From positions 1,761,001-1,825,000 of the forward strand of contig NZ_AP029018.1 of assembly GCF_037076525.1 (NCBI RefSeq): a DNA stretch of 64,000 nt, in the 5' to 3' direction. Every line of letters begins with the position of its first letter. The first letter of the stretch is position 1. This document shows positions 25,249 through 36,426 of the stretch, one piece after another. Source of the DNA: Selenomonas sp. TAMA-11512 (GTDB taxonomy: Bacteria > Bacillota > Negativicutes > Selenomonadales > Selenomonadaceae). The notes beneath the pieces are model-generated. The model saw nothing but the letters and a program-made list of their open reading frames with translations. It made no database searches and was not told the origin of the DNA. The position numbers and the translations under genes were made by a program.

Positions 25249-28200
25249 TCACTCCCCCACTATTCCCATGAACTTCTCAAAAAAGCCCTTGAGCTTTTCG
25301 ATTACGGAGCGTTTCTTTTCTGCGCGACCGCCGCCGAAACGGCGAACGGGCGGGAGGATGGCATCGATGGCAGTGCCGGTGATCTTGAACCGCCCGTCGC
25401 GGAAGGTGCTCGCAACGAACTTCTCGGTCTCGTCGGGTTTCAGGTTCTCTTCCACGACGATGGAGGCAAGCGCCTTTTCCTTTTCCTCGGTGACGTAGGC
25501 GCGCCAGTCCTCCATGACGCGCGTATCCGTGTTGACGGTCGCGATGAAGCCGTCGATCAGCTCCTTCTTACTGCGGAGCTCGGGGCTTGCGCCGATCGCG
25601 CGGTCAATCGCGCCGATAATGCTCTTGTCCGCGCCGTTCGAGGCGTGGTACTTCTCCACAAGCATCAATATATAGTCGATGTTGATGTCCACCTGCCGAA
25701 TGAGTTCGAGTTCAAAGACGACATCGTCGTTGATGTTCTCCTTCTCCGCTTTTCCCTTCCTCGTCAGCTCATTGTATATATCCAGGTAGGCGCTCTGGTA
25801 GTCCTGCAGGTCGCGCGGCGGCAGCAGAGGATCGTCCTCCGCGAAGTCGTCAAACGCCGTGAGGATGTTGCGGAGGCGCAGGATGCTGCCGAAGATCCGC
25901 ACGAAATCCTTCTGCGCCGTCTCTCCCATGATAGGCTCGCCCACAGCGAATCGCGCGCGCAGCTCCGCGATCAGCTCCGCGTAGCCCTTGTGGTGCTGCC
26001 CCTTCTCATCGTCGTACCCGTCGTAGTAGTCACGGAATCCGCGCAGCAGCACGACGCTCTCGGCGTTTTCGTCGCCAAAGAGCGAGATCGCGTCGTCCGT
26101 CGCCTTCGCGAGGTTGCGGAACGCGACGATGTTGCCGAACGTCTTGACCGAGTTCAGAATGCGGTTCGTGCGCGAGAACGCCTGAATCAGTCCATGATAT
26201 TTCAAATTTTTGTCCACCCAGAGCGTATTGAGCGTCGTCGCGTCAAAGCCCGTGAGAAACATATTCACCACGATGAGGAGGTCGATCTCGCGCTTCTTCA
26301 TGCGCTGTGAGAGATCTTTGTAGTAGTTCTGGAACGAATCGCCGTCCGTACTGAAATTCGTGTGAAACTGCGCGTTGTAGTCCGCAATCGCATCCGCGAG
26401 GAAATCGCGGCTCGTACGGTCAAGGCTCGCCGTACCAAAATCCTCATCGGGCAGAGCTTCCTCGGGATCATCCTCGTTCGCCGCATAGCTGAAAATCGTC
26501 GCAACCGTGAGACTCCGTCCCGCCTCCTCCAGTTGTCTGCGAAATTCCTCATAGTACGCCATGCACACGGGAATCGACGCGACGGCAAACATGGAGTTAA
26601 AGCCGAGCACGCGCTGTCCCTTGAGCGAATACGCCTTGCTCCGCATCGTCTTCTGGTCGAAATGCGCGAGGATGTACTCCGTCACGGCACGGATGCGCTC
26701 GGGCGCGGCGAGCGCTTTTTCGCGGTCGATAGCGCGCACCTCCTTGTCCTCGATCTCCGCCTTGCTCTTCATCGTATTGATGTAGTCGATGCGGAATGGC
26801 AGAACATTGCCGTCATTGATCGCGTTCACAATCGTATAGGTGTGCAGCTTGTCCCCGAAGAGCTGCGGCGTCGTGCGCGCCGACGGCTTTCCCGCGCCCG
26901 CCGCGTTCGGCGCGAAGATCGGCGTCCCCGTGAAACCGAAGAGATGATATTTCTTAAATACCTTCGTGATCGCCGTGTGCATGTCGCCGAACTGCGAGCG
27001 GTGGCACTCGTCAAAAATGAAAACAATGTGCTTTTCATAGATGGTGTGCGTTCGATTCTGTCGGATGAAGTTCGCAAGTTTCTGGATCGTCGTCACCACG
27101 ATGCGCGCCGTATCATCCTTGAGCTGTCCCGCGAGCACGCGCGTCGATGTGTTGCCGTTTGCCGCACCCTTCTCGAAGCGGTCGTACTCCCTCATTGTCT
27201 GATAGTCTAGATCTTTGCGGTCGACCACGAACAGCACCTTGTCGATCTCCGGCATCGCGGAGGCGAGCTGCGCCGTCTTGAACGAGGTCAGCGTCTTGCC
27301 CGAGCCCGTCGTGTGCCAAATGTAGCCGCCGCCCTCGATGCGCCCCCACGTCTTGTAATTGGACGAAATCCTGATACGGTTGAGAATGCGCTCCGTCGCC
27401 GCGATCTGATACGGACGCATGAGCATCAGCATCTCTTCCGTGGTAAAAATAGAGTAGCGCGTAAGGATAGAGAGCAGCGTATGCCGCGCGAGGAACGTCC
27501 GCCCGAAATCCATGAGGTCGGTGATGAGACGGTTACCCGCGTCTGCCCAGTAGGACGTGAACTCGAAACTGTTGCTCGTCTTCCTGCTCGCCTTGCGTCC
27601 CGCCGCGTCCATCTCGCGGATGTGGCTCGCGCGCGTCGTGTTGGAATAGTATTTCGTATTCGTCCCGTTCGAGATCACAAAAATTTGGACATACTCATAC
27701 AGCCCCACACCCGCCCAAAAGCTGTCACGCTGATACCGCTTGATCTGGTTGAACGCCTGCCGTATCTCCACACCGCGCCGTTTCAGCTCAATATGCACGA
27801 GCGGCAGACCGTTTACGAGGATCGTCACATCATAGCGGTTCGTGTGCGCCGCCGCATTCTCGGCGAAAGCATCCGCGCCGCCCTCCATCGCATATTGATT
27901 GATGACCTGCAGGCGATTGTTGTGGATATGCTCCTTATCGATCAGTCGGATATTCTTCGTCGTACCGTCATCACGCTTGAGATTCTGAATATAGTCCGTC
28001 TGGATGCGTCGTGTCTTCTCGACGATACCATCGCTCGCGGGTGCAATCGATGTTTTGAAGAACCGCTCCCACTCCGCATCCGTGAAATCATAGTCATTCA
28101 ACGCCGAAAGCTGCGTGCGGAGATTCGCCACAAGCTCCGCCTCATCGTGAATGGGGAGATGCGCATAGCCCTCCTCTTCCAGGAGACGGATGAGCGCCCC

Positions 28201-28308
28201 CTCGAGCGCCGCCTCCGACTGATAAGCCCCATAAGGCGCCCGCTCCTCGCGAACATACTGCGCAAGCACCGTACTCTCCTCTGCGCTCGCGATGAGATTG
28301 TAGTACAT
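25249..28308 (-). CDS. hsdR: Type I restriction enzyme R subunit (HsdR)
   Basis: 1019-aa motor and nuclease subunit. The N-terminal PD-(D/E)xK nuclease shows YDVTILVNGLPLVHIELKRRG (about 155-175). The helicase follows with Walker A HTTGSGKT (about 322-329), DECH in FIFDECHRSQFGD (about 430), FGFTGTP motif III, and the motif V-VI region FLTGFDATTLNTLWVDK and AFSRTNR. The frame begins at TTG 28329, but ACGAGGG precedes ATG 28308, which I choose. The subunit looks intact. Its partner hsdM is interrupted and hsdS is split, so the enzyme probably cannot assemble as a working type I complex. Confidence 0.92.
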   Translation of the reverse strand: MYYNLIASAEESTVLAQYVREERAPYGAYQSEAALEGALIRLLEEEGYAHLPIHDEAELVANLRTQLSALNDYDFTDAEWERFFKTSIAPASDGIVEKTRRIQTDYIQNLKRDDGTTKNIRLIDKEHIHNNRLQVINQYAMEGGADAFAENAAAHTNRYDVTILVNGLPLVHIELKRRGVEIRQAFNQIKRYQRDSFWAGVGLYEYVQIFVISNGTNTKYYSNTTRASHIREMDAAGRKASRKTSNSFEFTSYWADAGNRLITDLMDFGRTFLARHTLLSILTRYSIFTTEEMLMLMRPYQIAATERILNRIRISSNYKTWGRIEGGGYIWHTTGSGKTLTSFKTAQLASAMPEIDKVLFVVDRKDLDYQTMREYDRFEKGAANGNTSTRVLAGQLKDDTARIVVTTIQKLANFIRQNRTHTIYEKHIVFIFDECHRSQFGDMHTAITKVFKKYHLFGFTGTPIFAPNAAGAGKPSARTTPQLFGDKLHTYTIVNAINDGNVLPFRIDYINTMKSKAEIEDKEVRAIDREKALAAPERIRAVTEYILAHFDQKTMRSKAYSLKGQRVLGFNSMFAVASIPVCMAYYEEFRRQLEEAGRSLTVATIFSYAANEDDPEEALPDEDFGTASLDRTSRDFLADAIADYNAQFHTNFSTDGDSFQNYYKDLSQRMKKREIDLLIVVNMFLTGFDATTLNTLWVDKNLKYHGLIQAFSRTNRILNSVKTFGNIVAFRNLAKATDDAISLFGDENAESVVLLRGFRDYYDGYDDEKGQHHKGYAELIAELRARFAVGEPIMGETAQKDFVRIFGSILRLRNILTAFDDFAEDDPLLPPRDLQDYQSAYLDIYNELTRKGKAEKENINDDVVFELELIRQVDINIDYILMLVEKYHASNGADKSIIGAIDRAIGASPELRSKKELIDGFIATVNTDTRVMEDWRAYVTEEKEKALASIVVEENLKPDETEKFVASTFRDGRFKITGTAIDAILPPVRRFGGGRAEKKRSVIEKLKGFFEKFMGIVGE

Positions 28309-28344
28309 GATGTCCCTCGTTTCTTTCAAAAATACATCTCCATC

Positions 28345-28373
28345 TTTACAAGTCAGAAAATATAAGCTAGACT
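28345..28373 (+). promoter_or_regulatory. Promoter of the candidate small RNA
   Basis: TTTACA (28345-28350), a 17-base spacer and TAGACT (28368-28373) on the plus strand, antisense to the hsd operon. The predicted start near 28380 coincides with the start of the fold described in the next entry. Confidence 0.5.
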
Positions 28374-28379
28374 AAAAGC

Positions 28380-28536
28380 AAGAAGCAGACGATTATTTGA
28401 GGTGGTAAATTTCGTCCGAACCACACGCCGACGGTATGACAGGGGCAACCCGAGAGATGCAGGAGAAGCGGACGCCTGCCAAATAATTGTCTGTCAACGA
28501 GGGAAGTGCGCGCAGAGATGTGGGCGCTTCTTTTTT
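28380..28536 (+). ncRNA. Candidate structured small RNA between hsdS and hsdR
   Basis: About 157 nt. A 13-bp closing helix (28386-28398 with 28481-28493, one G-U pair) encloses three small hairpins: GTGGT/ACCAC, GGG/CCC around CAA, and GCAGG/CCTGC. This gives a four-way junction. A GAAGTGC/GCGCTTC hairpin with a T8 tract ends it at 28536, and a plausible promoter precedes it. No open frame explains the segment, no plus-strand gene follows, and I could not match it to a riboswitch, SRP, 6S or tmRNA consensus. It lies in an unusually long (400-base) gap inside a restriction operon. Confidence 0.45.
28503..28536 (+). terminator. Rho-independent terminator of the candidate RNA
   Basis: A 7-bp stem (GAAGTGC with GCGCTTC, one wobble pair) with a loop of about 14 bases, followed by eight T residues. 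It works only for plus-strand transcripts. Confidence 0.65.
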
Positions 28537-28553
28537 CATGCCTCAGACGTTCA

Positions 28554-28702
28554 AGGCGCCCCTTCCACCGCTTCGCGGTCTACACGTTCCGCGCACAGGC
28601 CCCTCCACCGCTGTGGCAGGGGAGACTTAGGATAAGGGCAGATCCACCTCTCCCGTCGCGGACGGGGGAGGTGGCGAACGCAGTGAGTCGGTAGGGGCGC
28701 CC
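28554..28702. repeat. Palindromic intergenic repeat between hsdS and the small RNA
   Basis: About 150 bp whose ends GGCGCCCCTTCCACCG and CGGTAGGGGCGCC are imperfect inverted repeats. Internal hairpins include CCCCTCCACCGCTGTGGCAGGGG and CCACCTCTCCC with GGGGGAGGTGG. GC-rich repeats of this kind are non-coding and dispersed in many Firmicutes genomes. The copy ends six bases before the hsdS stop codon. Confidence 0.6.
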
Positions 28703-28707
28703 GTATC

Positions 28708-29391
28708 TCATGCGCCCTTCCGCGGAAAGGTGAGAAGTTTGTCGCGGTAGTATTCGTACTGTTTTTTGCGTGCGGCGATCTCGGCGGGGAGTCCCTGTGT
28801 GAGGTCATTGCAGAGGGCGTCGAAGCGGTCGAGAATGGAGACGATTTTTTGCTGAACGGCGAGCGGCGGGATGGGAATCTTTATATTTTTAATAGCCGGA
28901 ACACTGGAATGAACAACCTTGCTCTTTACTTTCCCTTTGCTTTTCTGTTTCTGTGCCATTTCAGTAGATAAAACATACGAAATATATTTCGGGTTTTGTT
29001 CATGTTTTAGAACAACAATATCTCCTCCTGCCAAACACCTTTCATTTCCAATATATGCTGTTGATTTTGCAATCTCATCAACATTCTCGCCCGTAATTGC
29101 AAACAAAATATCACCATACTCAAAGTATTTCGGTGTTGAGGTGGGCGGCTTTTCTGTATGGAAAAAGCATGAATCAAACCAAATTCCATATTTTGTATAG
29201 ATTTCACCATAGCGAACACAAGGAATTCCTTTCTTCGTCACTTCATCTCGACGAATCCCTGTCCCACGAAAAATATCCGTTGCAATTTCCCCTAATGTTT
29301 TCCACTCAACTTCGACCGCTTTTTTCAGTAGGCCAATTTTACCGCTTCTTAGAGCTGTCTGTCTGAACGATTGTATCATCCACATGGACAA
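28708..29391 (-). CDS. hsdS: Type I specificity subunit, second half (HsdS fragment)
   Basis: 227 aa in a frame different from the first half, overlapping it by 53 bases. It holds one target recognition domain (WKTLGEIATDIFRGTGI to YISYVLSTEMA) and the closing conserved helix IPPLAVQQKIVSILDRFDALC, ending in KKQYEYYRDKLLTF. A normal HsdS has two such halves in one chain of about 400-450 aa. Real homology starts near GLLKKAVEVEWKTLGEI; the first 20 residues are probably not natural. So either the gene is frameshifted near 29345, or two half-subunits are made separately. I favour a frameshift. Confidence 0.75.
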   Translation of the reverse strand: MSMWMIQSFRQTALRSGKIGLLKKAVEVEWKTLGEIATDIFRGTGIRRDEVTKKGIPCVRYGEIYTKYGIWFDSCFFHTEKPPTSTPKYFEYGDILFAITGENVDEIAKSTAYIGNERCLAGGDIVVLKHEQNPKYISYVLSTEMAQKQKSKGKVKSKVVHSSVPAIKNIKIPIPPLAVQQKIVSILDRFDALCNDLTQGLPAEIAARKKQYEYYRDKLLTFPRKGA

Positions 29392-30016
29392 AGTTCAAAA
29401 GACTGTCACGATAAAAATTATACTGCTTTTTTCGTAACAAGTGTTCCGCTGTTAGCTCCGTTGTCAGCTTCGCTGTTAGCTCCGTAAAATTGTCTAGCAA
29501 TTTTACGATTTCATCTTGGATGGATCGCGGCGGGACGGGAATGAGCGCTTGCCCCACTCCATTCGCTGAAATTGATGATATTTTTCCTGTCGTAATATAT
29601 TTCTTCAACTGTCGATGATAGTCTTCTGTTCGTAAAATATACGAAATAAACACAGGGTTTAATTCATGATGTAAAATATAACAAGCATCATGAACTGCTA
29701 CCTCTGCTGTTCCCAGCCAAGCTACACCAATACCTATATCTTCGATTGTTTCACCCGCCCCAACAATGACAATATCATTCGGCTGCGCGTATCTCATTTT
29801 GGAAGCAATTTCTGACCGTATGTGTGTTTTCGTTGTATTGGCAGTAATGCCATAATATGTATAAAGTTCTCCATAATGGATTGCAGGTACACCATCGTCT
29901 GTAAAATCATTTTTTACGAAGCGTTTCCCTCGGGTAAGTGTTCCAATCTCCCCCAACTTCTTATACTCCACGCCCTCAGGACACATTTCTTTTATCATCT
30001 CACTCAACTTACTCAC
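29339..30016 (-). CDS. hsdS: Type I specificity subunit, first half (HsdS fragment)
   Basis: 225 aa with the N-terminal target recognition domain. It begins MCPEGVEYKKLGEIGTLTRG, runs through IHYGELYTYYGI and ISYILRTEDY, and reaches the central conserved helix IPVPPRSIQDEIVKLLDNF and KKQYNFYRDSLLNF. The frame ends at QTDSSKKR where a complete HsdS would continue into the second recognition domain. The start overlaps the end of the hsdM C-terminal fragment by 4 bases, the normal hsdM-hsdS coupling. Confidence 0.75.
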   Translation of the reverse strand: MSKLSEMIKEMCPEGVEYKKLGEIGTLTRGKRFVKNDFTDDGVPAIHYGELYTYYGITANTTKTHIRSEIASKMRYAQPNDIVIVGAGETIEDIGIGVAWLGTAEVAVHDACYILHHELNPVFISYILRTEDYHRQLKKYITTGKISSISANGVGQALIPVPPRSIQDEIVKLLDNFTELTAKLTTELTAEHLLRKKQYNFYRDSLLNFVHVDDTIVQTDSSKKR

Positions 30017-30921
30017 AGCTCCATTCCCTCCTCTCCCTCGATCTCAGCGATGATGCGCTCGATCTCGTCACGCAGGACAGCCTCGCGTGCGACGATTTCC
30101 CGTATCTCCTCGTTGAGCTTCACGATGTCGATGACTTCGCGGGTATCCTCGGGCTCGACGTAGGTACTGACGGAGAGGTTGTAGTCCTCGGCGGCGATTT
30201 CCGCGCCCTTCACCGTGCGCACGATATGTGCGACATCCGCGCGATCCGTATAGAATTTCAGAATATGCTCAATATTTTCCTGCGTGAGCTTGTTGTTGTT
30301 TATGATCTTGACGAATTCCTTCGACGCGTCAATGAAGAGGGTTTTCGTGTCCGGCTTCGACTTCTTGAGCACCATGATGCAGGTCGCGATGCTCGTGCCG
30401 AAGAAGAGGTTCGCGGGGAGCTGGATGACGGCATCGACATAGTTGCTGTCAATAAGATACTGTCGGATTTTCTTCTCCGCGCCGCCGCGATACATGATGC
30501 CGGGGAAGCAGACGATCGCTGCCGTACCGTTACTCGCAAGCCACGCGAGCGCGTGCATGATAAAGGCAAGGTCTGCCTTCGATGGTGGAGCAAGGATACC
30601 TGCCGGAGCAAAGCGAGGGTCGTTGATAAGCGTTGGATTATTCTTTCCCTCCCAGCGAATCGCATATGGCGGATTCGACACAATCGCCTCAAACGGCTCA
30701 TCGTCCCAGTGCTGCGGAGCGGTCAACGTGTCCCCGCGCGCGATGTCAAAGTCATCGAAGTTGATGTCGTGCAGGAACATATTGATGCGGCAGAGGTTGT
30801 AGGTGGTGATGTTGATCTCCTGCCCATAGAAGGCGTTCCGCACATTATCCTTGCCGAGCACCTTCGCGAACTTGAGTAAGAGGGAGCCACTTCCACTTGT
30901 GAAATCATATAGTAATTTCAA
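30013..30921 (-). pseudogene. hsdM: Type I methyltransferase HsdM, C-terminal fragment
   Basis: The frame from 30921 begins in an AT-rich stretch reading LLYDFTSGSGSLLL. From GSGSLLLKFAKVLGKDN onward it is normal HsdM: FYGQEINITTYNLCRINMF, the catalytic NPPY in AIVSNPPYAIRW, and the helical C-terminus. The missing N-terminal 230 or so residues lie 4.7 kb away at 35575-36426. The first base given is only where the frame opens; a TTG there has no convincing ribosome site. The gene is split by an AT-rich insert exactly inside SAM motif I. Confidence 0.85.
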
Positions 30922-31045
30922 CGCTTGTAGATGTAAATAATCTATCTATTCAGGTGGATTACTAATACAACAATATGAGAGTTACAATAATTTATTATAT
31001 CAAATATTAATTTAAATAAATCGTTTACACATTTTTTAAGTATAC

Positions 31046-32785
31046 TTATTGGAACTCATCAAATTCAAATTCTATCGCAATCATCTCATCAGTTGATGTA
31101 AGTGGTTTTCCCTTCGCTGTAGTCCTACCTTGTTCCGAAAATAAATATAAATTTTTCTTTGCTCGTGAGCAAACCACGTATAGCAATTTTTTAGTTTCAT
31201 CTTCTCGATATTGTTTTGATTGCCGAATTATCGTATCCCAGTGTGGAATATATCCATTTAGAATACCAAATGCTATAACTGTATCATATTCTTCTCCTTT
31301 CACACCATGAAATGTATTTATTACCACACCTTCTTTTTCTTTGAAGCATTGTTTAAAAGTATCAATACTTGTAGATAAATCATAGCGCTGTACTCTATCA
31401 TTAATTTTTGCAATAAAACTTTCATAGGATCTTTGTAGAAATTGCTCCTGACTCAAATTAACTCCAAAAATATGAAAGAACTTAATAATCGACCTTTGAA
31501 GATAATCCAAGCCATTCTCTTCTTCACATAATAAAGAATTAACTACCTTTAAAATCATATATGTATCTACTTTTTCGTGTAGTTCTATTTTGTACTCTTC
31601 CGATAAAATCTTAACTATTTCATTTGCAATTTTTTTTCTAATCCATGTCTTTTTTCCAGGTTCAGTAAATAATAGCCTTGCAAACAGAAAAAATACATTC
31701 ATAGGATCATACTTTATTGGAGTAATATCCGGTGCATCAAATTTTACATCAGGTAAAAGTGTCTTCATTTGTTTTGATAATGGAAATAATAACCACCATT
31801 GTGGGGCAATAATACATATTTCGTTCTCTGGAATCCCCTCAGATATCTGCCTTTTTACAATTTGAGCTATTCCTTCAAACAAATCTGTTTTATTAATTGT
31901 ATTATTATAAACTAAGCAACCCATTTCATCTTTAATTTCAGAAACTGCATATATTGGAACATACTTCAGCTGAAAATTAGAATAATAATTAATTATGCGC
32001 TGAGTTGTGCGATAACAACCATCTAATTTTTCTTCTTTAAAAGCAACCCCAAACTCTAATTCTAATTCTTCAGATGTTTTTGCAATACCACCAAGTGCAC
32101 CATAAATAGCTTGATCTGTGTCTCCTACAAAAGTTAATAATATTTTTTTATTAGCCGATACTATACAGCCCAATATACCATACTGCAATTCATTCGTATC
32201 TTGATACTCGTCAACTAAGATTGATCTTGTAACTCCACCAATATTCTCTGCAATAAATGGACAGGTCTTAACTAACTCAAAGGATATTTTTAATATATCA
32301 TTAAAGTCAATCTCTTTCTCAGCTAATAACTTTTCTTCATACTTGTTCACAATTTCCGGAAAATCAAATGGTTTATTATAACCAATGTCTATACCAAGAT
32401 TCTTAACAATTTCATCTACATATTGACTTTGTACATACTCATCAATAATATGATATCCTTTTTTTAATCGGTTATGGTACATTGTATACGGTCTGATAAT
32501 AAATTCAAGGCAAAACTGATGTATTGTCCCTACCCACACTTTATCTTCCGGAATATCCATTTTCTCCAACCGCTCTCTGATTTCATCAGCAGCTCTATTT
32601 GTGTATGTAATTGCAATATTTATTTTTTTTGAAAGCTCATATTTTCTTATTATATATGCTAGCTTATAAGCTAATGTTCTTGTTTTACCACTTCCTGGAC
32701 AAGCCTTAAGCAAAATGTTACTACCTTCAATACATACCTTTTTCTGTTGTGGATTCAATTGCTCTAAAAAAGGCATATCTTCCAT
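31046..32785 (-). CDS. gajB: UvrD/Rep-like helicase, Gabija GajB-like
   Basis: 579 aa superfamily 1A helicase. Q-motif LNPQQKKVC (about 10-18), Walker A ACPGSGKTRT (about 28-37), motif Ia ITYTNRAADEI, Walker B ILVDEYQDTN (about 189-198), motif III FVGDTDQAIYG, motif IV GCYRTTQRI, motif V INTFHGVKGEEYDTVI and motif VI YVVCSRAKKNLYLF are all present. The start codon overlaps the stop of the OLD-type gene by one base (TAATG), so they are made together. A class 2 OLD nuclease followed by such a helicase is the Gabija anti-phage arrangement. Low GC marks it as acquired. The 124 bases after it hold nothing recognisable. Confidence 0.82.
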   Translation of the reverse strand: MEDMPFLEQLNPQQKKVCIEGSNILLKACPGSGKTRTLAYKLAYIIRKYELSKKINIAITYTNRAADEIRERLEKMDIPEDKVWVGTIHQFCLEFIIRPYTMYHNRLKKGYHIIDEYVQSQYVDEIVKNLGIDIGYNKPFDFPEIVNKYEEKLLAEKEIDFNDILKISFELVKTCPFIAENIGGVTRSILVDEYQDTNELQYGILGCIVSANKKILLTFVGDTDQAIYGALGGIAKTSEELELEFGVAFKEEKLDGCYRTTQRIINYYSNFQLKYVPIYAVSEIKDEMGCLVYNNTINKTDLFEGIAQIVKRQISEGIPENEICIIAPQWWLLFPLSKQMKTLLPDVKFDAPDITPIKYDPMNVFFLFARLLFTEPGKKTWIRKKIANEIVKILSEEYKIELHEKVDTYMILKVVNSLLCEEENGLDYLQRSIIKFFHIFGVNLSQEQFLQRSYESFIAKINDRVQRYDLSTSIDTFKQCFKEKEGVVINTFHGVKGEEYDTVIAFGILNGYIPHWDTIIRQSKQYREDETKKLLYVVCSRAKKNLYLFSEQGRTTAKGKPLTSTDEMIAIEFEFDEFQ

Positions 32786-34950
32786 TATTCACACCAACTT
32801 TCACAATATTTATCAACCTCAATTAATAATTTTGATACAACACCGTCTTCATATGCATCTCTAAAATTCTGAATACAACATTTTTTGTCTGTAACATCTG
32901 TTAGCATCTGAAATTTTTCTTTTAATTTAATACTGTCCTCAGTTTCCTCATACTGATTTAATGAATATTCAACCATCTTAAATATAATATCAACATTTAT
33001 TATTTCTCTACTTGCAAATGCAATAGCAGCTAATATATACTGTGGTATGCAAACCGCACTATCAATATAATTTGATAAAATGGTTGCATACCAACCTTTT
33101 CCCATATCTCTTGCTAACGTTAAAATCGTATTAGCACAATCTGCATCAGAGCCAGTATCTATATTATTTTTATGTTCTTTTCTTGTACAATCTATACTAT
33201 AATTCAACTCTATAACTTCATTGATATATTCCTTATTTTGCCTATTATTCGTCAAAGCAAAATCAATTTCTAAGGTATGAGGAGCATAGAAAGACTTTAC
33301 CCATATATTTCTGTCATATAGCATTTCTAGCTTTTCTTTTCTACTTTCTCCTCTTTTTTGAGCTTGCATCTTATAAAAACTACTAGTACTTTCTACTATT
33401 TGAACATCTTCATCAGTAACAATTGCGCATGATCTATTTATTCTTATATCTGCAAATAGACTCGCAATATATTCAAAGGATACACTTCCTACATTTATGA
33501 GTCCAATTCCAAGCTCATCCAAAGAAACTCCAAAAGCACTCTTTACAATATTAGGAATTAAAATTTCTTCTCCATCTCCTTCTACTAAAATAACCCCTTT
33601 CGAAAAGAGCAATACTGTGCGCTTTGCATCCAGATAGCGTTCAATACAATTTGATAATGTTAAGTTCTTTAGGTTAAGAAATTCTTCACCAAACTCGTCT
33701 AGCCCATTATTGGGTTGCATTGAAATACTTTTATTATCCAAAGATTTCAAAATATTTATATTTTTAATATTCGAAACTTCAGCCAAATGTGTTGAATGGG
33801 TAGTAGTTATTATTTGGGTATAATCCTTTGCAACTTTTAACTTATCAAACAAAGTTCTTTGAATATGTGTATGAATATGTGCCTCTGGCTCCTCAATAAT
33901 CATAATGTTTATAAGTTCTCTCGTTCTATTGATTTCATATTCAACTATTTTCAAAGCCATATAAATCATATTTAGATGTCCTAATCCTAAAGATTCTATA
34001 TCATTCTGTTTTGATGGTTTTAAAAATAAATATCGTGATAATGATTTTAAATCATCCTTCATTCCAGATTCTAAAATTATTTCTGGAGAATACACCATTC
34101 CTATCATGTCCAATAATTTCTCATTAATTTTCTTACCAACAAGTTCTACTTGCTCGACTTTAGATATGGATTTGTTCAAATTCATAATTTCGTCTTTAAT
34201 TGAGCTGATTTCTGATTCTTTTATCAATGATTCTACTGATTCAATAATTCTTCTGATAGGGTTTTTAGGCTTTTTTAATTCACTTTCTACATCTCGTAAA
34301 GCATCAACAAATACCACTGATATATGATCCTGTACATCCGCTATATTTAATTTACATCCTAAAATTTCATCATCATCTTCGTCAGGATTTGTACATTGTC
34401 CGTTATCTAAATCTCCAACAATTTTTTTGTATATTGTTTCATTTATAAAATCCGTTTGTGCTCGACTTGTAAAATAAAATTCATAATCTGCAATTCTTAT
34501 TTTATTCCGCTCTTTTTCAAATTCTATCGGATTGGTAATTTCACTTAATTTTTTTCTTATTTGCTTTTGTGGACGAATAAAAAGAGAAATTACACCAATA
34601 TTATCATCTCCACTTTTTATATAGGATTTCAGAAAATCCTCATTCTCATTACTAGGCACTAGTTCTGCACATATCTCCGTTTGTTTATCCACAGATGTAA
34701 TGTTTCCAAATATTGCCGAAAAAATTATCCAATGTCCTTTCCAGTTATTCAAAGTGTCCGAAAAATCATTATCCTTAAGTCTTTTTGTGTTATAGTAGTA
34801 TGAATCATCCAACAATATGCGAAGAGCTGTCATTGCATTTGATTTTCCAGAATCATTTTCCCCAATAATTGTATTTACTCCTTCAACGAAAGAAAAATGT
34901 GTAGCTCTTAAATTTTTGTAATTTACAACTTGAAAATGATTTAAATACAT
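32785..34950 (-). CDS. gajA: OLD-family ATPase/TOPRIM nuclease, Gabija GajA-like
   Basis: 721 aa. The ABC-type ATPase has Walker A GENDSGKS at about 30-37, a long coiled insertion, a signature-like LGLGHLNMIYMAL, Walker B IMIIEEPEAH and the H-loop TTTHSTHL. The C-terminal TOPRIM nuclease shows VILVEGDGEEIL (conserved Glu) and AIVTDEDV (Asp-x-Asp). This domain order defines OLD nucleases; the adjacent helicase makes it class 2, that is Gabija. It is longer than the classical GajA of about 580 aa. ATG 34950 follows AAAGGGG; the frame opens at a GTG seven codons earlier. Confidence 0.82.
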   Translation of the reverse strand: MYLNHFQVVNYKNLRATHFSFVEGVNTIIGENDSGKSNAMTALRILLDDSYYYNTKRLKDNDFSDTLNNWKGHWIIFSAIFGNITSVDKQTEICAELVPSNENEDFLKSYIKSGDDNIGVISLFIRPQKQIRKKLSEITNPIEFEKERNKIRIADYEFYFTSRAQTDFINETIYKKIVGDLDNGQCTNPDEDDDEILGCKLNIADVQDHISVVFVDALRDVESELKKPKNPIRRIIESVESLIKESEISSIKDEIMNLNKSISKVEQVELVGKKINEKLLDMIGMVYSPEIILESGMKDDLKSLSRYLFLKPSKQNDIESLGLGHLNMIYMALKIVEYEINRTRELINIMIIEEPEAHIHTHIQRTLFDKLKVAKDYTQIITTTHSTHLAEVSNIKNINILKSLDNKSISMQPNNGLDEFGEEFLNLKNLTLSNCIERYLDAKRTVLLFSKGVILVEGDGEEILIPNIVKSAFGVSLDELGIGLINVGSVSFEYIASLFADIRINRSCAIVTDEDVQIVESTSSFYKMQAQKRGESRKEKLEMLYDRNIWVKSFYAPHTLEIDFALTNNRQNKEYINEVIELNYSIDCTRKEHKNNIDTGSDADCANTILTLARDMGKGWYATILSNYIDSAVCIPQYILAAIAFASREIINVDIIFKMVEYSLNQYEETEDSIKLKEKFQMLTDVTDKKCCIQNFRDAYEDGVVSKLLIEVDKYCESWCE

Positions 34951-34989
34951 ATATTCAACCCCTTTTTTCACTTTAATTTTATCTCCCCC

Positions 34990-35561
34990 ACCAACTCATT
35001 CACCGTTTTAAACGATCACATCTCTGATGGCGTCTACTTGCATATTTATAGGATAGCTGTTCGTTGGTAAGATCTTTTAAGCGATACTCTTTAATTGCCT
35101 CTGTATGGATTTTATAGTTAATCTTTGAAATTTCTCGATTAAGATTTCAACCTAATGATAATTTTTAGTTTTCATATGATTTAAGTCTTTTGTAATCTTG
35201 AATTACACGCATCTTAAATCAAGCAAAAATCCATGAAGCAAATTCAAAAACAATATCTGTATGTGCAAATTCACCACCATATCTTCCACCTTTTGAAATA
35301 ATTCCAATAGCTTCTGCTTTCTCTACCCATTTTTAGGAGACAATGTAAAGGAATTAAATTCATGTTGTTTAAGCTTTCTCATAAACCAAGAAATTAAATT
35401 GTATCTTTTCTTCTCATCCAATTTTTGAATACATCACTTGGTTCATCACTTTTATATCTAGCAATATCCGTTAGACTTATATAGTCGTTTTTAAAGTCTT
35501 CAGTATAAATTTGAATAGCAAAACCTTTTGCTTCAATCGTGTCTTTTTTCGCCTTAGACAT
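34990..35561 (-). pseudogene. KilA-N domain protein, multiply broken
   Basis: ATG 35561 follows AAAGGAGG and opens a frame reading KKDTIEAKGFAIQIYTEDF, then YISLTDIARYK and VFKNWMRRKDTI, before a TAA. Homology continues in other frames: FLGLWEKL-like residues, then EAIGIISKGGRYGGEFAHTD and IVFEFASWIF, then INYKIHTEAIKE near the end. At least three frameshifts or stops are needed. This is the phage-type KilA-N family. It fills the 600 bases between gajA and the hsdM N-terminal fragment, and supports a phage or island origin of the insert. Confidence 0.8.
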
Positions 35562-35574
35562 ATGAGTTCCTCCT

Positions 35575-36426
35575 TTATGCTGATGTACTGTTTACAATAT
35601 TTTTTTTCATAAAACTCTCCTGCATAGCACACCAACAATTCATTTTTCTAGCTTTAAACTTTGGTAGAAGCTCTAAAACCCTTGTGTTTACTTGACTATT
35701 TGCCTGTGTCATTATTATGACACGAAACCCACACGCGGGATCGTATACCTTGTTGACCTGCTCCTTGCCGATGACAGTGAGGCGCGTGAGGAGTTCGGAG
35801 ACCTCCTGCGGCGTGTAGTATTCACCTCCGCTCTTACCTGCGTTTGATGCGTACATGCCCATCAGGTACTCATACGCGTCGCCGAAAGCGTCGATGGTAT
35901 TGTCCTGGTAGTGTCCGAGGCTCATGTCCCCGACACCGTCGAGCAGCTTGACGAGTTTCGCGTTGCGCTCCTTCACCGTCGCGCCAAGCTTATTGCTGTT
36001 GACATCGAGATCTTCAAACAGACCTTCCAAATCGCCCTCGCTCACCGTTCCCGCCGCCGAACATTCGATGTTATGAAAGACTTTTTCGAGCGTCTCGTTG
36101 AGGTTTTCATTCGCGGCGACATTTTTCCGCACATTCTGAAACAGTTCGCTCGGCGGGATGAAATAGCCCTGCTCTTCAACGAGGCTCGCGCGCTCCCTCT
36201 CCGCCTCCGCATCAGACAGCGCGGCATAGTCAAAGTCCGCATCGCCCGCCTCGCGTGCCTCTTCGTTGAGGTAGTTCGTCAGTTTCTCCGAGATATAGCG
36301 ATAGAACAGCGTGCCGAGCACATACTGCTTGAAGTCCCAGCCGTCCACGCTCCCGCGCAGGTCGTTCGCAATCTGCCAGATGGCGCGGTGCAGCTCCGCA
36401 CGCTCCATTTCCTTCTTATTGTCCAT
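35575..36426 (-). pseudogene. hsdM: Type I methyltransferase HsdM, N-terminal fragment
   Basis: 283 codons. The first 235 or so are a normal HsdM N-terminus: the helical bundle (LHRAIWQIANDLRGSVDGWDF), GEYYTPQEVSELLTRLTV, and VYDPACG, which is the start of SAM motif I. After that the frame runs into unrelated AT-rich sequence (MTQANSQVNTRVLELLPKF) and stops. AAGGGAG precedes the ATG. The rest of the protein is encoded at 30013-30921. The methyltransferase cannot be active from this fragment because the SAM and catalytic motifs are missing. Confidence 0.88.

What the first reader, a model, noticed from the sequence alone, without database searches (positions are those of the whole stretch)
28345..28536. 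Candidate small RNA gene antisense inside the hsd operon
A promoter-like pair (TTTACA-17-TAGACT), a 13-bp closing helix around three hairpins, and a terminator with a T8 tract follow each other in the right order on the plus strand within a 400-base gap that is odd for an hsd operon. No coding frame or known RNA class explains it. It could regulate the restriction genes or be an RNA from a mobile element.
Basis: seen in the sequence. Interest (0 to 1): 0.68.

Follow-up and report, generated by a model that had tools for sequence, protein, structure and literature searches.

The report
Orphan skipping-rope RNA, likely toxin antidote
The small RNA in this restriction operon belongs to a known but unexplained RNA family that almost always sits directly beside genes for a phage-type RNA-cutting toxin, so it is probably the toxin's RNA antidote, and here the toxin gene has been deleted and only the antidote is left.

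Summary
A promoter, a folded RNA and a terminator lie at 28345-28536, but the RNA is a member of Rfam RF02924, "skipping-rope", function unknown (55.4 bits, cut-off 36.7). New here is its partner. In 189 genomes of the window's family, 43 of 49 PBECR2 (predicted RNase, BECR fold) matches have a skipping-rope RNA within 87 bp. In viral contigs fetched by PBECR2/3 protein alone, 33 of 34 have one; the 34th is cut by its contig end. There the nuclease is usually the C-terminus of a capsid protein (19 of 20 scanned). The RNA has its own promoter and terminator and a covarying pseudoknot. Toxin remnants beside kept RNAs are common. In relative G026 a PBECR2 gene sits between hsdR and the RNA; in the window it is deleted except its last codons. 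Best reading: skipping-rope RNAs are RNA antitoxins of PBECR nucleases, and the window copy is a solitary antitoxin. Inhibition itself is inferred, not shown.

The parts
28341..28370 (+). last codons of the deleted PBECR2 toxin gene (HLYKSENIS-stop)
   Evidence: aligns with the end of the L291 (G026) PBECR2 gene...VLYKSKNIG-stop; L291 9330-9863 has no counterpart in the window
28345..28373 (+). sigma-70-like promoter TTTACA-17-TAGACT of the RNA
   Evidence: conserved position in the family
28386..28399 (+). closing helix P1, 5' arm (pairs with 28480-28493)
   Evidence: 11 of the 12 P1 pairs counted change on both sides somewhere in the alignment
28480..28493 (+). closing helix P1, 3' arm
28392..28487 (+). 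skipping-rope RNA, RF02924 match
   Evidence: 55.4 bits, gathering 36.7
28402..28424 (+). hairpin P2 (28402-28406/28420-28424)
   Evidence: 99.7% of cells paired
28413..28418 (+). pseudoknot 5' side CGTCCG (P2 loop)
   Evidence: pairs with 28469-28474; 5 of 6 pairs change on both sides, 96.9% of cells paired
28469..28474 (+). pseudoknot 3' side CGGACG (P5 loop)
28427..28435 (+). short hairpin P3
   Evidence: weak covariation; one pair varies on one side
28443..28451 (+). hairpin P4
   Evidence: all 3 pairs change on both sides; 85.6% of cells paired
28459..28479 (+). hairpin P5
   Evidence: 100% of cells paired
28499..28536 (+). Rho-independent terminator hairpin and T6 run
   Evidence: terminator-like sites follow 115 of 149 distinct family RNAs
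25249..28329 (-). hsdR, type I restriction subunit (host operon of the module)
28708..30016 (-). hsdS, in two frames (28708-29391 and 29339-30016)
   Evidence: single 457-aa frame in L291

Best explanation
Skipping-rope (RF02924) is the RNA half of a two-part toxin-antitoxin or immunity system whose protein half is a phage-type BECR-fold nuclease (PBECR2 or PBECR3). The RNA is made from its own promoter, which overlaps the toxin's last codons, folds into a long closing helix with kissing hairpins, and most likely binds and blocks the nuclease. In phages the nuclease is mostly the C-terminal domain of a capsid protein, so it can be carried in the virion and injected; the RNA would protect the producing or lysogenic cell. 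In bacteria, free-standing toxin+RNA pairs sit in restriction operons and elsewhere. In the window the toxin between hsdR and the RNA has been deleted and the intact RNA remains as a solitary antitoxin. Shown: RNA family, structure, promoter and terminator signals, near-obligatory linkage, toxin fold class (predicted), loss of the toxin here. Inferred: nuclease activity, direct inhibition by the RNA, and any benefit of the solitary copy.
For: (1) 43 of 49 PBECR2 matches in 189 genomes lie at most 87 bp from an RF02924 match; about 0.01 expected by my arithmetic. (2) 33 of 34 viral loci found by protein alone carry the RNA beside it, and so does the one annotated-phage record found. (3) RNA subtype follows toxin subtype: type A with PBECR2 76 of 77, type B with PBECR3 26 of 26 (18 further toxin-linked RNAs of unsorted type C left out). 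(4) One-sided loss: 16 of 28 RNAs not near a Pfam-level PBECR keep pieces or divergent copies of one within 2 kb; of the over-cut-off, uninterrupted PBECR2 frames not cut by a contig end, none lacks an RNA on its contig, though in one it lies 1,359 bp away. (5) Own promoter and terminator signals, and 12 toxin matches in convergent orientation, so the RNA is not just a piece of the toxin mRNA. (6) Pseudoknotted structure with strong covariation. (7) PBECR2 model (pLDDT 92) is closest to BrnT, CDI and RelE/YoeB-type toxins; the histidines and the Ser/Thr position named for PBECR are kept. (8) In orthologous hsd operons the same slot holds RelB-YafQ, HTH and Gp49-like (HigB-like) genes, or Abi_2.
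Against: No experiment. The RNA lies after the toxin, single or double, unlike the repeat arrays in front of known type III toxins. RNA and toxin divergence correlate only weakly within PBECR2 pairs (Mantel r 0.243, 3 of 2000 permutations as high, n=59). 17 of 76 RNAs in the family and 27 of 53 outside have no PBECR detectable by my profiles within 2.5 kb. Nine PBECR3-only matches, several in very large proteins, have no RNA match on their contig. Foldseek alone gives no significant PDB match.
Confidence: 0.72

Rival explanations
1. The RNA controls synthesis of the nuclease instead of its activity: an antisense (type I-like) RNA or a processed 3' UTR element of the toxin mRNA.
For: Toxin stop codon lies typically 20-31 nt before the RNA on the same strand, so transcripts can run through.
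Against: Own promoter and terminator signals; 12 convergent matches; predicted duplexes with its own toxin mRNA are no better than with other toxins' mRNAs (median rank 20 of 45; 45 of 74 pairs used); solitary RNAs persist.
Confidence: 0.1
2. The RNA is a cofactor, guide or packaging partner of the nuclease, needed for its action or loading into the virion, not an inhibitor.
For: Nearly every PBECR2 has one; in phages it follows capsid-fused nucleases.
Against: RNAs survive where the toxin is truncated or lost (window), which is expected of antitoxins, not of cofactors; free-standing pairs occur in restriction operons (L291, L331).
Confidence: 0.1
3. The window copy is a functionless leftover of the deleted module, now decaying.
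For: The toxin is deleted, hsdM is interrupted and hsdS is split; no PBECR2/3 match anywhere in this genome.
Against: Promoter, all helices, pseudoknot and terminator are intact; against L291 the RNA match itself differs at 2 of 96 positions, both in loops, and the P1 extension differs only by pair-preserving changes, but the loss may be recent.
Confidence: 0.25
4. It is an sRNA that regulates the hsd genes.
For: Position between hsdR and hsdS.
Against: RF02924 occurs in 50 of 189 family genomes in many contexts; its constant partner is PBECR; the slot carries unrelated modules in relatives.
Confidence: 0.02

Closest known systems
Rfam RF02924 skipping-rope RNA
   Same: The window RNA is a member by score, structure and pseudoknot; Rfam shows a pk_1 pseudoknot (figure legend in PMC7779021, passage read).
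   Different: No function is given in what I could read; the PBECR partner, promoter position and antitoxin role are added here.
Type III toxin-antitoxin systems (ToxIN and relatives)
   Same: RNase-like protein toxin beside a small pseudoknotted RNA.
   Different: The toxin is PBECR2/3 (BECR fold); one RNA (sometimes two) after the gene, with its own promoter, or convergent; no repeat array in front.
MuF polymorphic toxins of temperate phages (Jamet 2017, PMC5576092, passages read)
   Same: Toxin domain at the C-terminus of a phage head protein, thought to be injected with the DNA.
   Different: Immunity there is taken to be a small downstream protein; here an RNA lies directly downstream.
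PBECR domains of polyvalent proteins (Iyer 2017, PMC5512222, passages read)
   Same: Same nuclease families, capsid fusions and solo forms.
   Different: No RNA or immunity partner is mentioned in the passages read; the authors suggest mRNA or CRISPR RNA as targets.
AbiF with RCd22 RNA (PMC12373285, passages read)
   Same: Phage-carried defence protein with an adjacent structured RNA motif from the same 2017 screen.
   Different: Different RNA family (RF03085), different protein, RNA upstream of the gene.

Membership tests
RF02924 skipping-rope RNA | covariance-model score over the gathering cut-off | tested here: met
   55.4 against 36.7 bits, positions 1-80 of 80
RF02924 skipping-rope RNA | conserved helices and pseudoknot with covariation | tested here: met
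   95.6% of cells paired against 81.0% shuffled; pseudoknot 5 of 6 pairs change on both sides (65 of 80 distinct type A sequences)
Type III toxin-antitoxin | RNA gene adjacent to a protein toxin gene | tested here: met
   43 of 49, 33 of 34; in the window only toxin remnants
Type III toxin-antitoxin | antitoxin RNA is a repeat array in front of the toxin gene (recalled; repeats also in the PMC8860590 abstract) | tested here: not met
   RNA single or double and behind or convergent with the gene
Type III toxin-antitoxin | toxin of the ToxN/CptN/TenpN kind (recalled) | tested here: not met
   Pfam gives PBECR2/PBECR3
Type III toxin-antitoxin | RNA binds and inhibits the toxin | not testable with these tools
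   needs binding and co-expression assays
PBECR2/PBECR3 nuclease | Pfam score over cut-off; [quoted passage not shown]
   L316, L326 and others over 27.1 bits. The window itself keeps only the last codons
PBECR2/PBECR3 nuclease | BECR fold | tested here: inconclusive
   AF2 pLDDT 92; VIA Z 7.3 (rmsd 4.0, 90 aligned), 6.9 (2.9, 76) and 5.9 (3.9, 91) to TA and CDI toxins; Foldseek not significant
MuF polymorphic toxin | head-protein domain followed by a C-terminal toxin | tested here: met
   19 of 20 viral proteins scanned, of 34 loci; free-standing bacterial pairs lack it
MuF polymorphic toxin | small immunity ORF downstream | not tested
   the space directly behind the toxin is taken by the RNA; ORFs further on were not examined

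The most novel reading that the evidence does not exclude
Skipping-rope RNAs are RNA immunity factors against virion-delivered phage nucleases. A phage carries a capsid-fused PBECR RNase and protects its own lysogens with this RNA, and bacteria keep solitary copies, as in this restriction operon, as a shield against incoming effectors.
Probability: 0.35. Interest if true: 0.9.

Novelty: new variant of a known kind. Interest (0 to 1): 0.78.

Why it matters
It proposes a function, and a directly testable partner, for an RNA family that has had none that I could find. It would add a protein-RNA toxin-antitoxin kind with a new toxin fold for that class, and it would mean that immunity to some injected phage effectors is an RNA, not a protein, which protein-based searches for immunity genes cannot see.

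Tried and rejected
No solved-structure relative of PBECR2 by sequence. tblastn with one PBECR3 found nothing in annotated phages. The antisense idea was tested and not supported. Within PBECR2 pairs the RNA-toxin co-divergence is weak. The 177-bp stretch 28536-28712, behind the RNA, was searched for further copies in the own genome; none. Target duplications or terminal repeats of the Gabija insertion in hsdM were looked for and not found. Literature: searches gave no paper linking skipping-rope to PBECR; the founding paper (Weinberg 2017) is not held, so its text and supplement were not seen. Rows dropped: the covariation alignment uses 65 of 80 distinct type A RNAs (15 with long inserts or shorter middle parts left out); promoter and terminator counts use 149 of 165 RNAs (duplicates and those near contig ends left out); the co-divergence test uses 59 distinct toxins of 70 pairs; the duplex test 45 of 74 pairs. 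Remnant finds include weak ones (L277, L310, L311) and a full-length divergent or displaced copy in some (L270, L283, L292). Related loci are not independent (for example L331, L333, L334, L335 look like one orthologous place).

Full report
What is there. The plus strand at 28345-28536 holds a sigma-70-like promoter, an RNA that folds far better than shuffled sequence (z -3.7) and a terminator hairpin. Rfam assigns 28392-28487 to RF02924, skipping-rope, at 55.4 bits against a cut-off of 36.7; it is the only RNA-family match in the window.

How common it is. RF02924 is found in 50 of 189 genomes of the window's family (76 matches, 17 of 30 genera), 56 of 300 genomes drawn from the class and 28 of 398 from the phylum. 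These draws overlap with the family set. The window's genome has one copy.

The partner. I fetched up to 20 kb round each of the 76 family matches (the window itself for its own), called open frames and clustered them. One cluster of about 125-130 aa lay beside the RNA again and again, its stop codon about 20 nt before the RNA. Pfam names it PBECR2 (PF18810) or PBECR3 (PF18812), phage BECR-fold nucleases. Searched the other way round, 49 PBECR2 matches were found in the same 189 genomes, and 43 of the 49 have an RF02924 match within 87 bp, in nine genera. One more has it 1,359 bp away. The other five: one has an internal stop; one lies 51 bases from the contig end on the side where the RNA would be; one is a weak match 84 bases from a contig end; two are below Pfam's cut-off. 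A permissive scan round four of these five found no RNA (the fifth, G001, was not scanned). Nine matches to PBECR3 only, four of them in frames of more than 1,100 aa, have no RNA match on their contig; two of these nine were scanned permissively without a find. The linkage therefore covers PBECR2 and the short PBECR3, not every PBECR3.

Independent check in viruses. With the PBECR2 and PBECR3 protein alignments alone I found 30 and 4 loci in viral contigs. Rfam finds skipping-rope beside or behind the nuclease in 33 of the 34. The 34th (L531) ends three bases after the match. In L508 the RNA is 2.27 kb further on; L513, L516 and L525 have two RNAs in a row. The single annotated-phage record with a match (MT835941) has it too. 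Of 20 of these viral proteins scanned, 19 begin with a phage head domain (Phage_min_cap2 or Phage_Mu_F) and end with PBECR2. Two bacterial loci (L320, L329) show the same fusion.

Types match. Sorting RNAs by sequence and toxins by profile, type A RNAs with a toxin have PBECR2 in 76 of 77 and type B have PBECR3 in 26 of 26; 18 toxin-linked RNAs of unsorted type C are left out of this count. For 83 of 84 RNAs with PBECR2 the gene is upstream on the same strand; for 12 of 37 RNAs with PBECR3 it is downstream and convergent. Outside the family 26 of 53 RNAs have a PBECR within 2.5 kb. Within PBECR2 pairs, however, RNA and toxin distances correlate only weakly (r 0.243, n 59), so I do not claim tight one-to-one co-evolution.

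Structure. On 65 type A RNAs, 95.6% of cells pair (81.0% after shuffling, 0 of 500 shuffles as high), 25 of 34 pairs change on both sides, and sliding the partner by one to three columns drops the covariation score from 0.466 to at most 0.112. The kissing pseudoknot keeps pairing through many different sequences, for example CGTCCG/CGGACG in the window, CGTGTC/GGCACG and CGTTGC/GCGACG elsewhere.

An RNA gene of its own. A promoter-like pair of at least 9/12 lies within 60 nt upstream in 113 of 149 distinct sequences; control windows give 7, 8 and 5, and shuffles a mean of 13.9. A terminator-like hairpin follows in 115 of 149, against 16 and 9 in control windows and 4.1 in shuffles. The window's -35 hexamer lies in the toxin's last codons.

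What happened in the window. Relative G026 (L291) has the same restriction operon. Window 25265-28327 matches its hsdR at 86%, and window 28343-28541 matches its RNA region at 90%. The 534 bp between, holding the PBECR2 gene (L291 9445-9891) except its end, are missing from the window. Window 28341-28370 still reads HLYKSENIS-stop where L291 reads VLYKSKNIG-stop. The genome has no PBECR2 or PBECR3 match. Elsewhere too the toxin is worn down beside a kept RNA: 16 of 28 RNAs without a Pfam-level toxin nearby have pieces or divergent copies of one within 2 kb, in L286 and L328 only the last 31 and 23 residues, while 12 of 28, the window among them, show none at that threshold. Loss of the toxin with the RNA kept, and hardly ever the reverse, is what a toxin-antitoxin pair predicts.

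The slot. In relatives with hsdR 80-92% identical, the space between hsdR and hsdS carries other modules: Abi_2 in G027, an ATPase-domain protein in G031 and a like frame in G029 (the G029 protein was not scanned), a helix-turn-helix protein in G141 and a Gp49-like toxin frame in G142, whose loci look alike, and RelB with YafQ toxin in G177. Of the 26 hsdR loci, the PBECR profiles hit only G026, and only the window and G026 have an RF02924 match there. PBECR2 plus skipping-rope thus sits where ordinary toxin-antitoxin pairs sit.

Mechanism. The histidines and the Ser/Thr position named for PBECR active sites are kept, and the predicted fold (pLDDT 92) is nearest to BrnT, CDI and RelE/YoeB-type toxins (Z 7.3 to 4.7), though such Z values are middling and Foldseek alone is not significant. 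I infer an RNase that the pseudoknotted RNA binds and blocks. Own-mRNA pairing is no better than with other toxins' mRNAs, which speaks against an antisense mode. Inhibition has not been shown.

Known and new. The RNA family, the nuclease families and capsid-toxin fusions are known. In the passages I read, PBECR has no named immunity partner and MuF toxin immunity is taken to be a small protein. Phage fragments carrying skipping-rope RNAs were noted in passing in PMC8501573 (passage). No paper found joins the two; the founding RNA paper could not be read. The result works like a type III toxin-antitoxin system but does not meet two of that class's defining features, so I file it as a new variant.

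Noticed in passing
window 30888-35729: A 4.84-kb insertion with a complete Gabija pair (GajA 32785-34971, GajB 31046-32785) splits hsdM into 35575-36426 and 30013-30921; hsdM is whole in L291. No terminal repeats or target duplication seen.
   Followed up: partly
window 28708-30016: hsdS is in two overlapping frames, a single 457-aa frame in L291; with hsdM split, this type I system is probably dead.
   Followed up: no
window 28542-28709: About 168 bases absent from L291 between the RNA's terminator and hsdS, with short CCACCGC repeats; no second copy in the genome.
   Followed up: partly
L539, L540, L542, L543, L544, L545 (hsdR-hsdS interval): The same slot of orthologous hsd operons carries Abi_2, an ATPase-domain protein, HTH plus Gp49-like, or RelB-YafQ: a site of exchangeable modules.
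   Followed up: partly
L280, L295, L306, L319, L513, L516, L525: Two skipping-rope RNAs in a row behind one nuclease gene; in the four bacterial pairs the two have different pseudoknot sequences.
   Followed up: no
L518 6757-6817; L519 1530-1593: GP20-b RNA (RF03003) lies a few hundred bases behind the nuclease and skipping-rope RNA in two viral contigs.
   Followed up: no
L293, L474, L484: RNAs without a PBECR follow other conflict-type genes closely: KilA-N (L293), a nucleotidyltransferase (L474) and a weak HicA-like frame below cut-off (L484). Perhaps other partners.
   Followed up: partly
L306 8647-11298 and frames of the same cluster in L272, L273, L313: An MmeI-type restriction-methylase (Pfam on L306 only) lies near PBECR2/RNA modules.
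   Followed up: no
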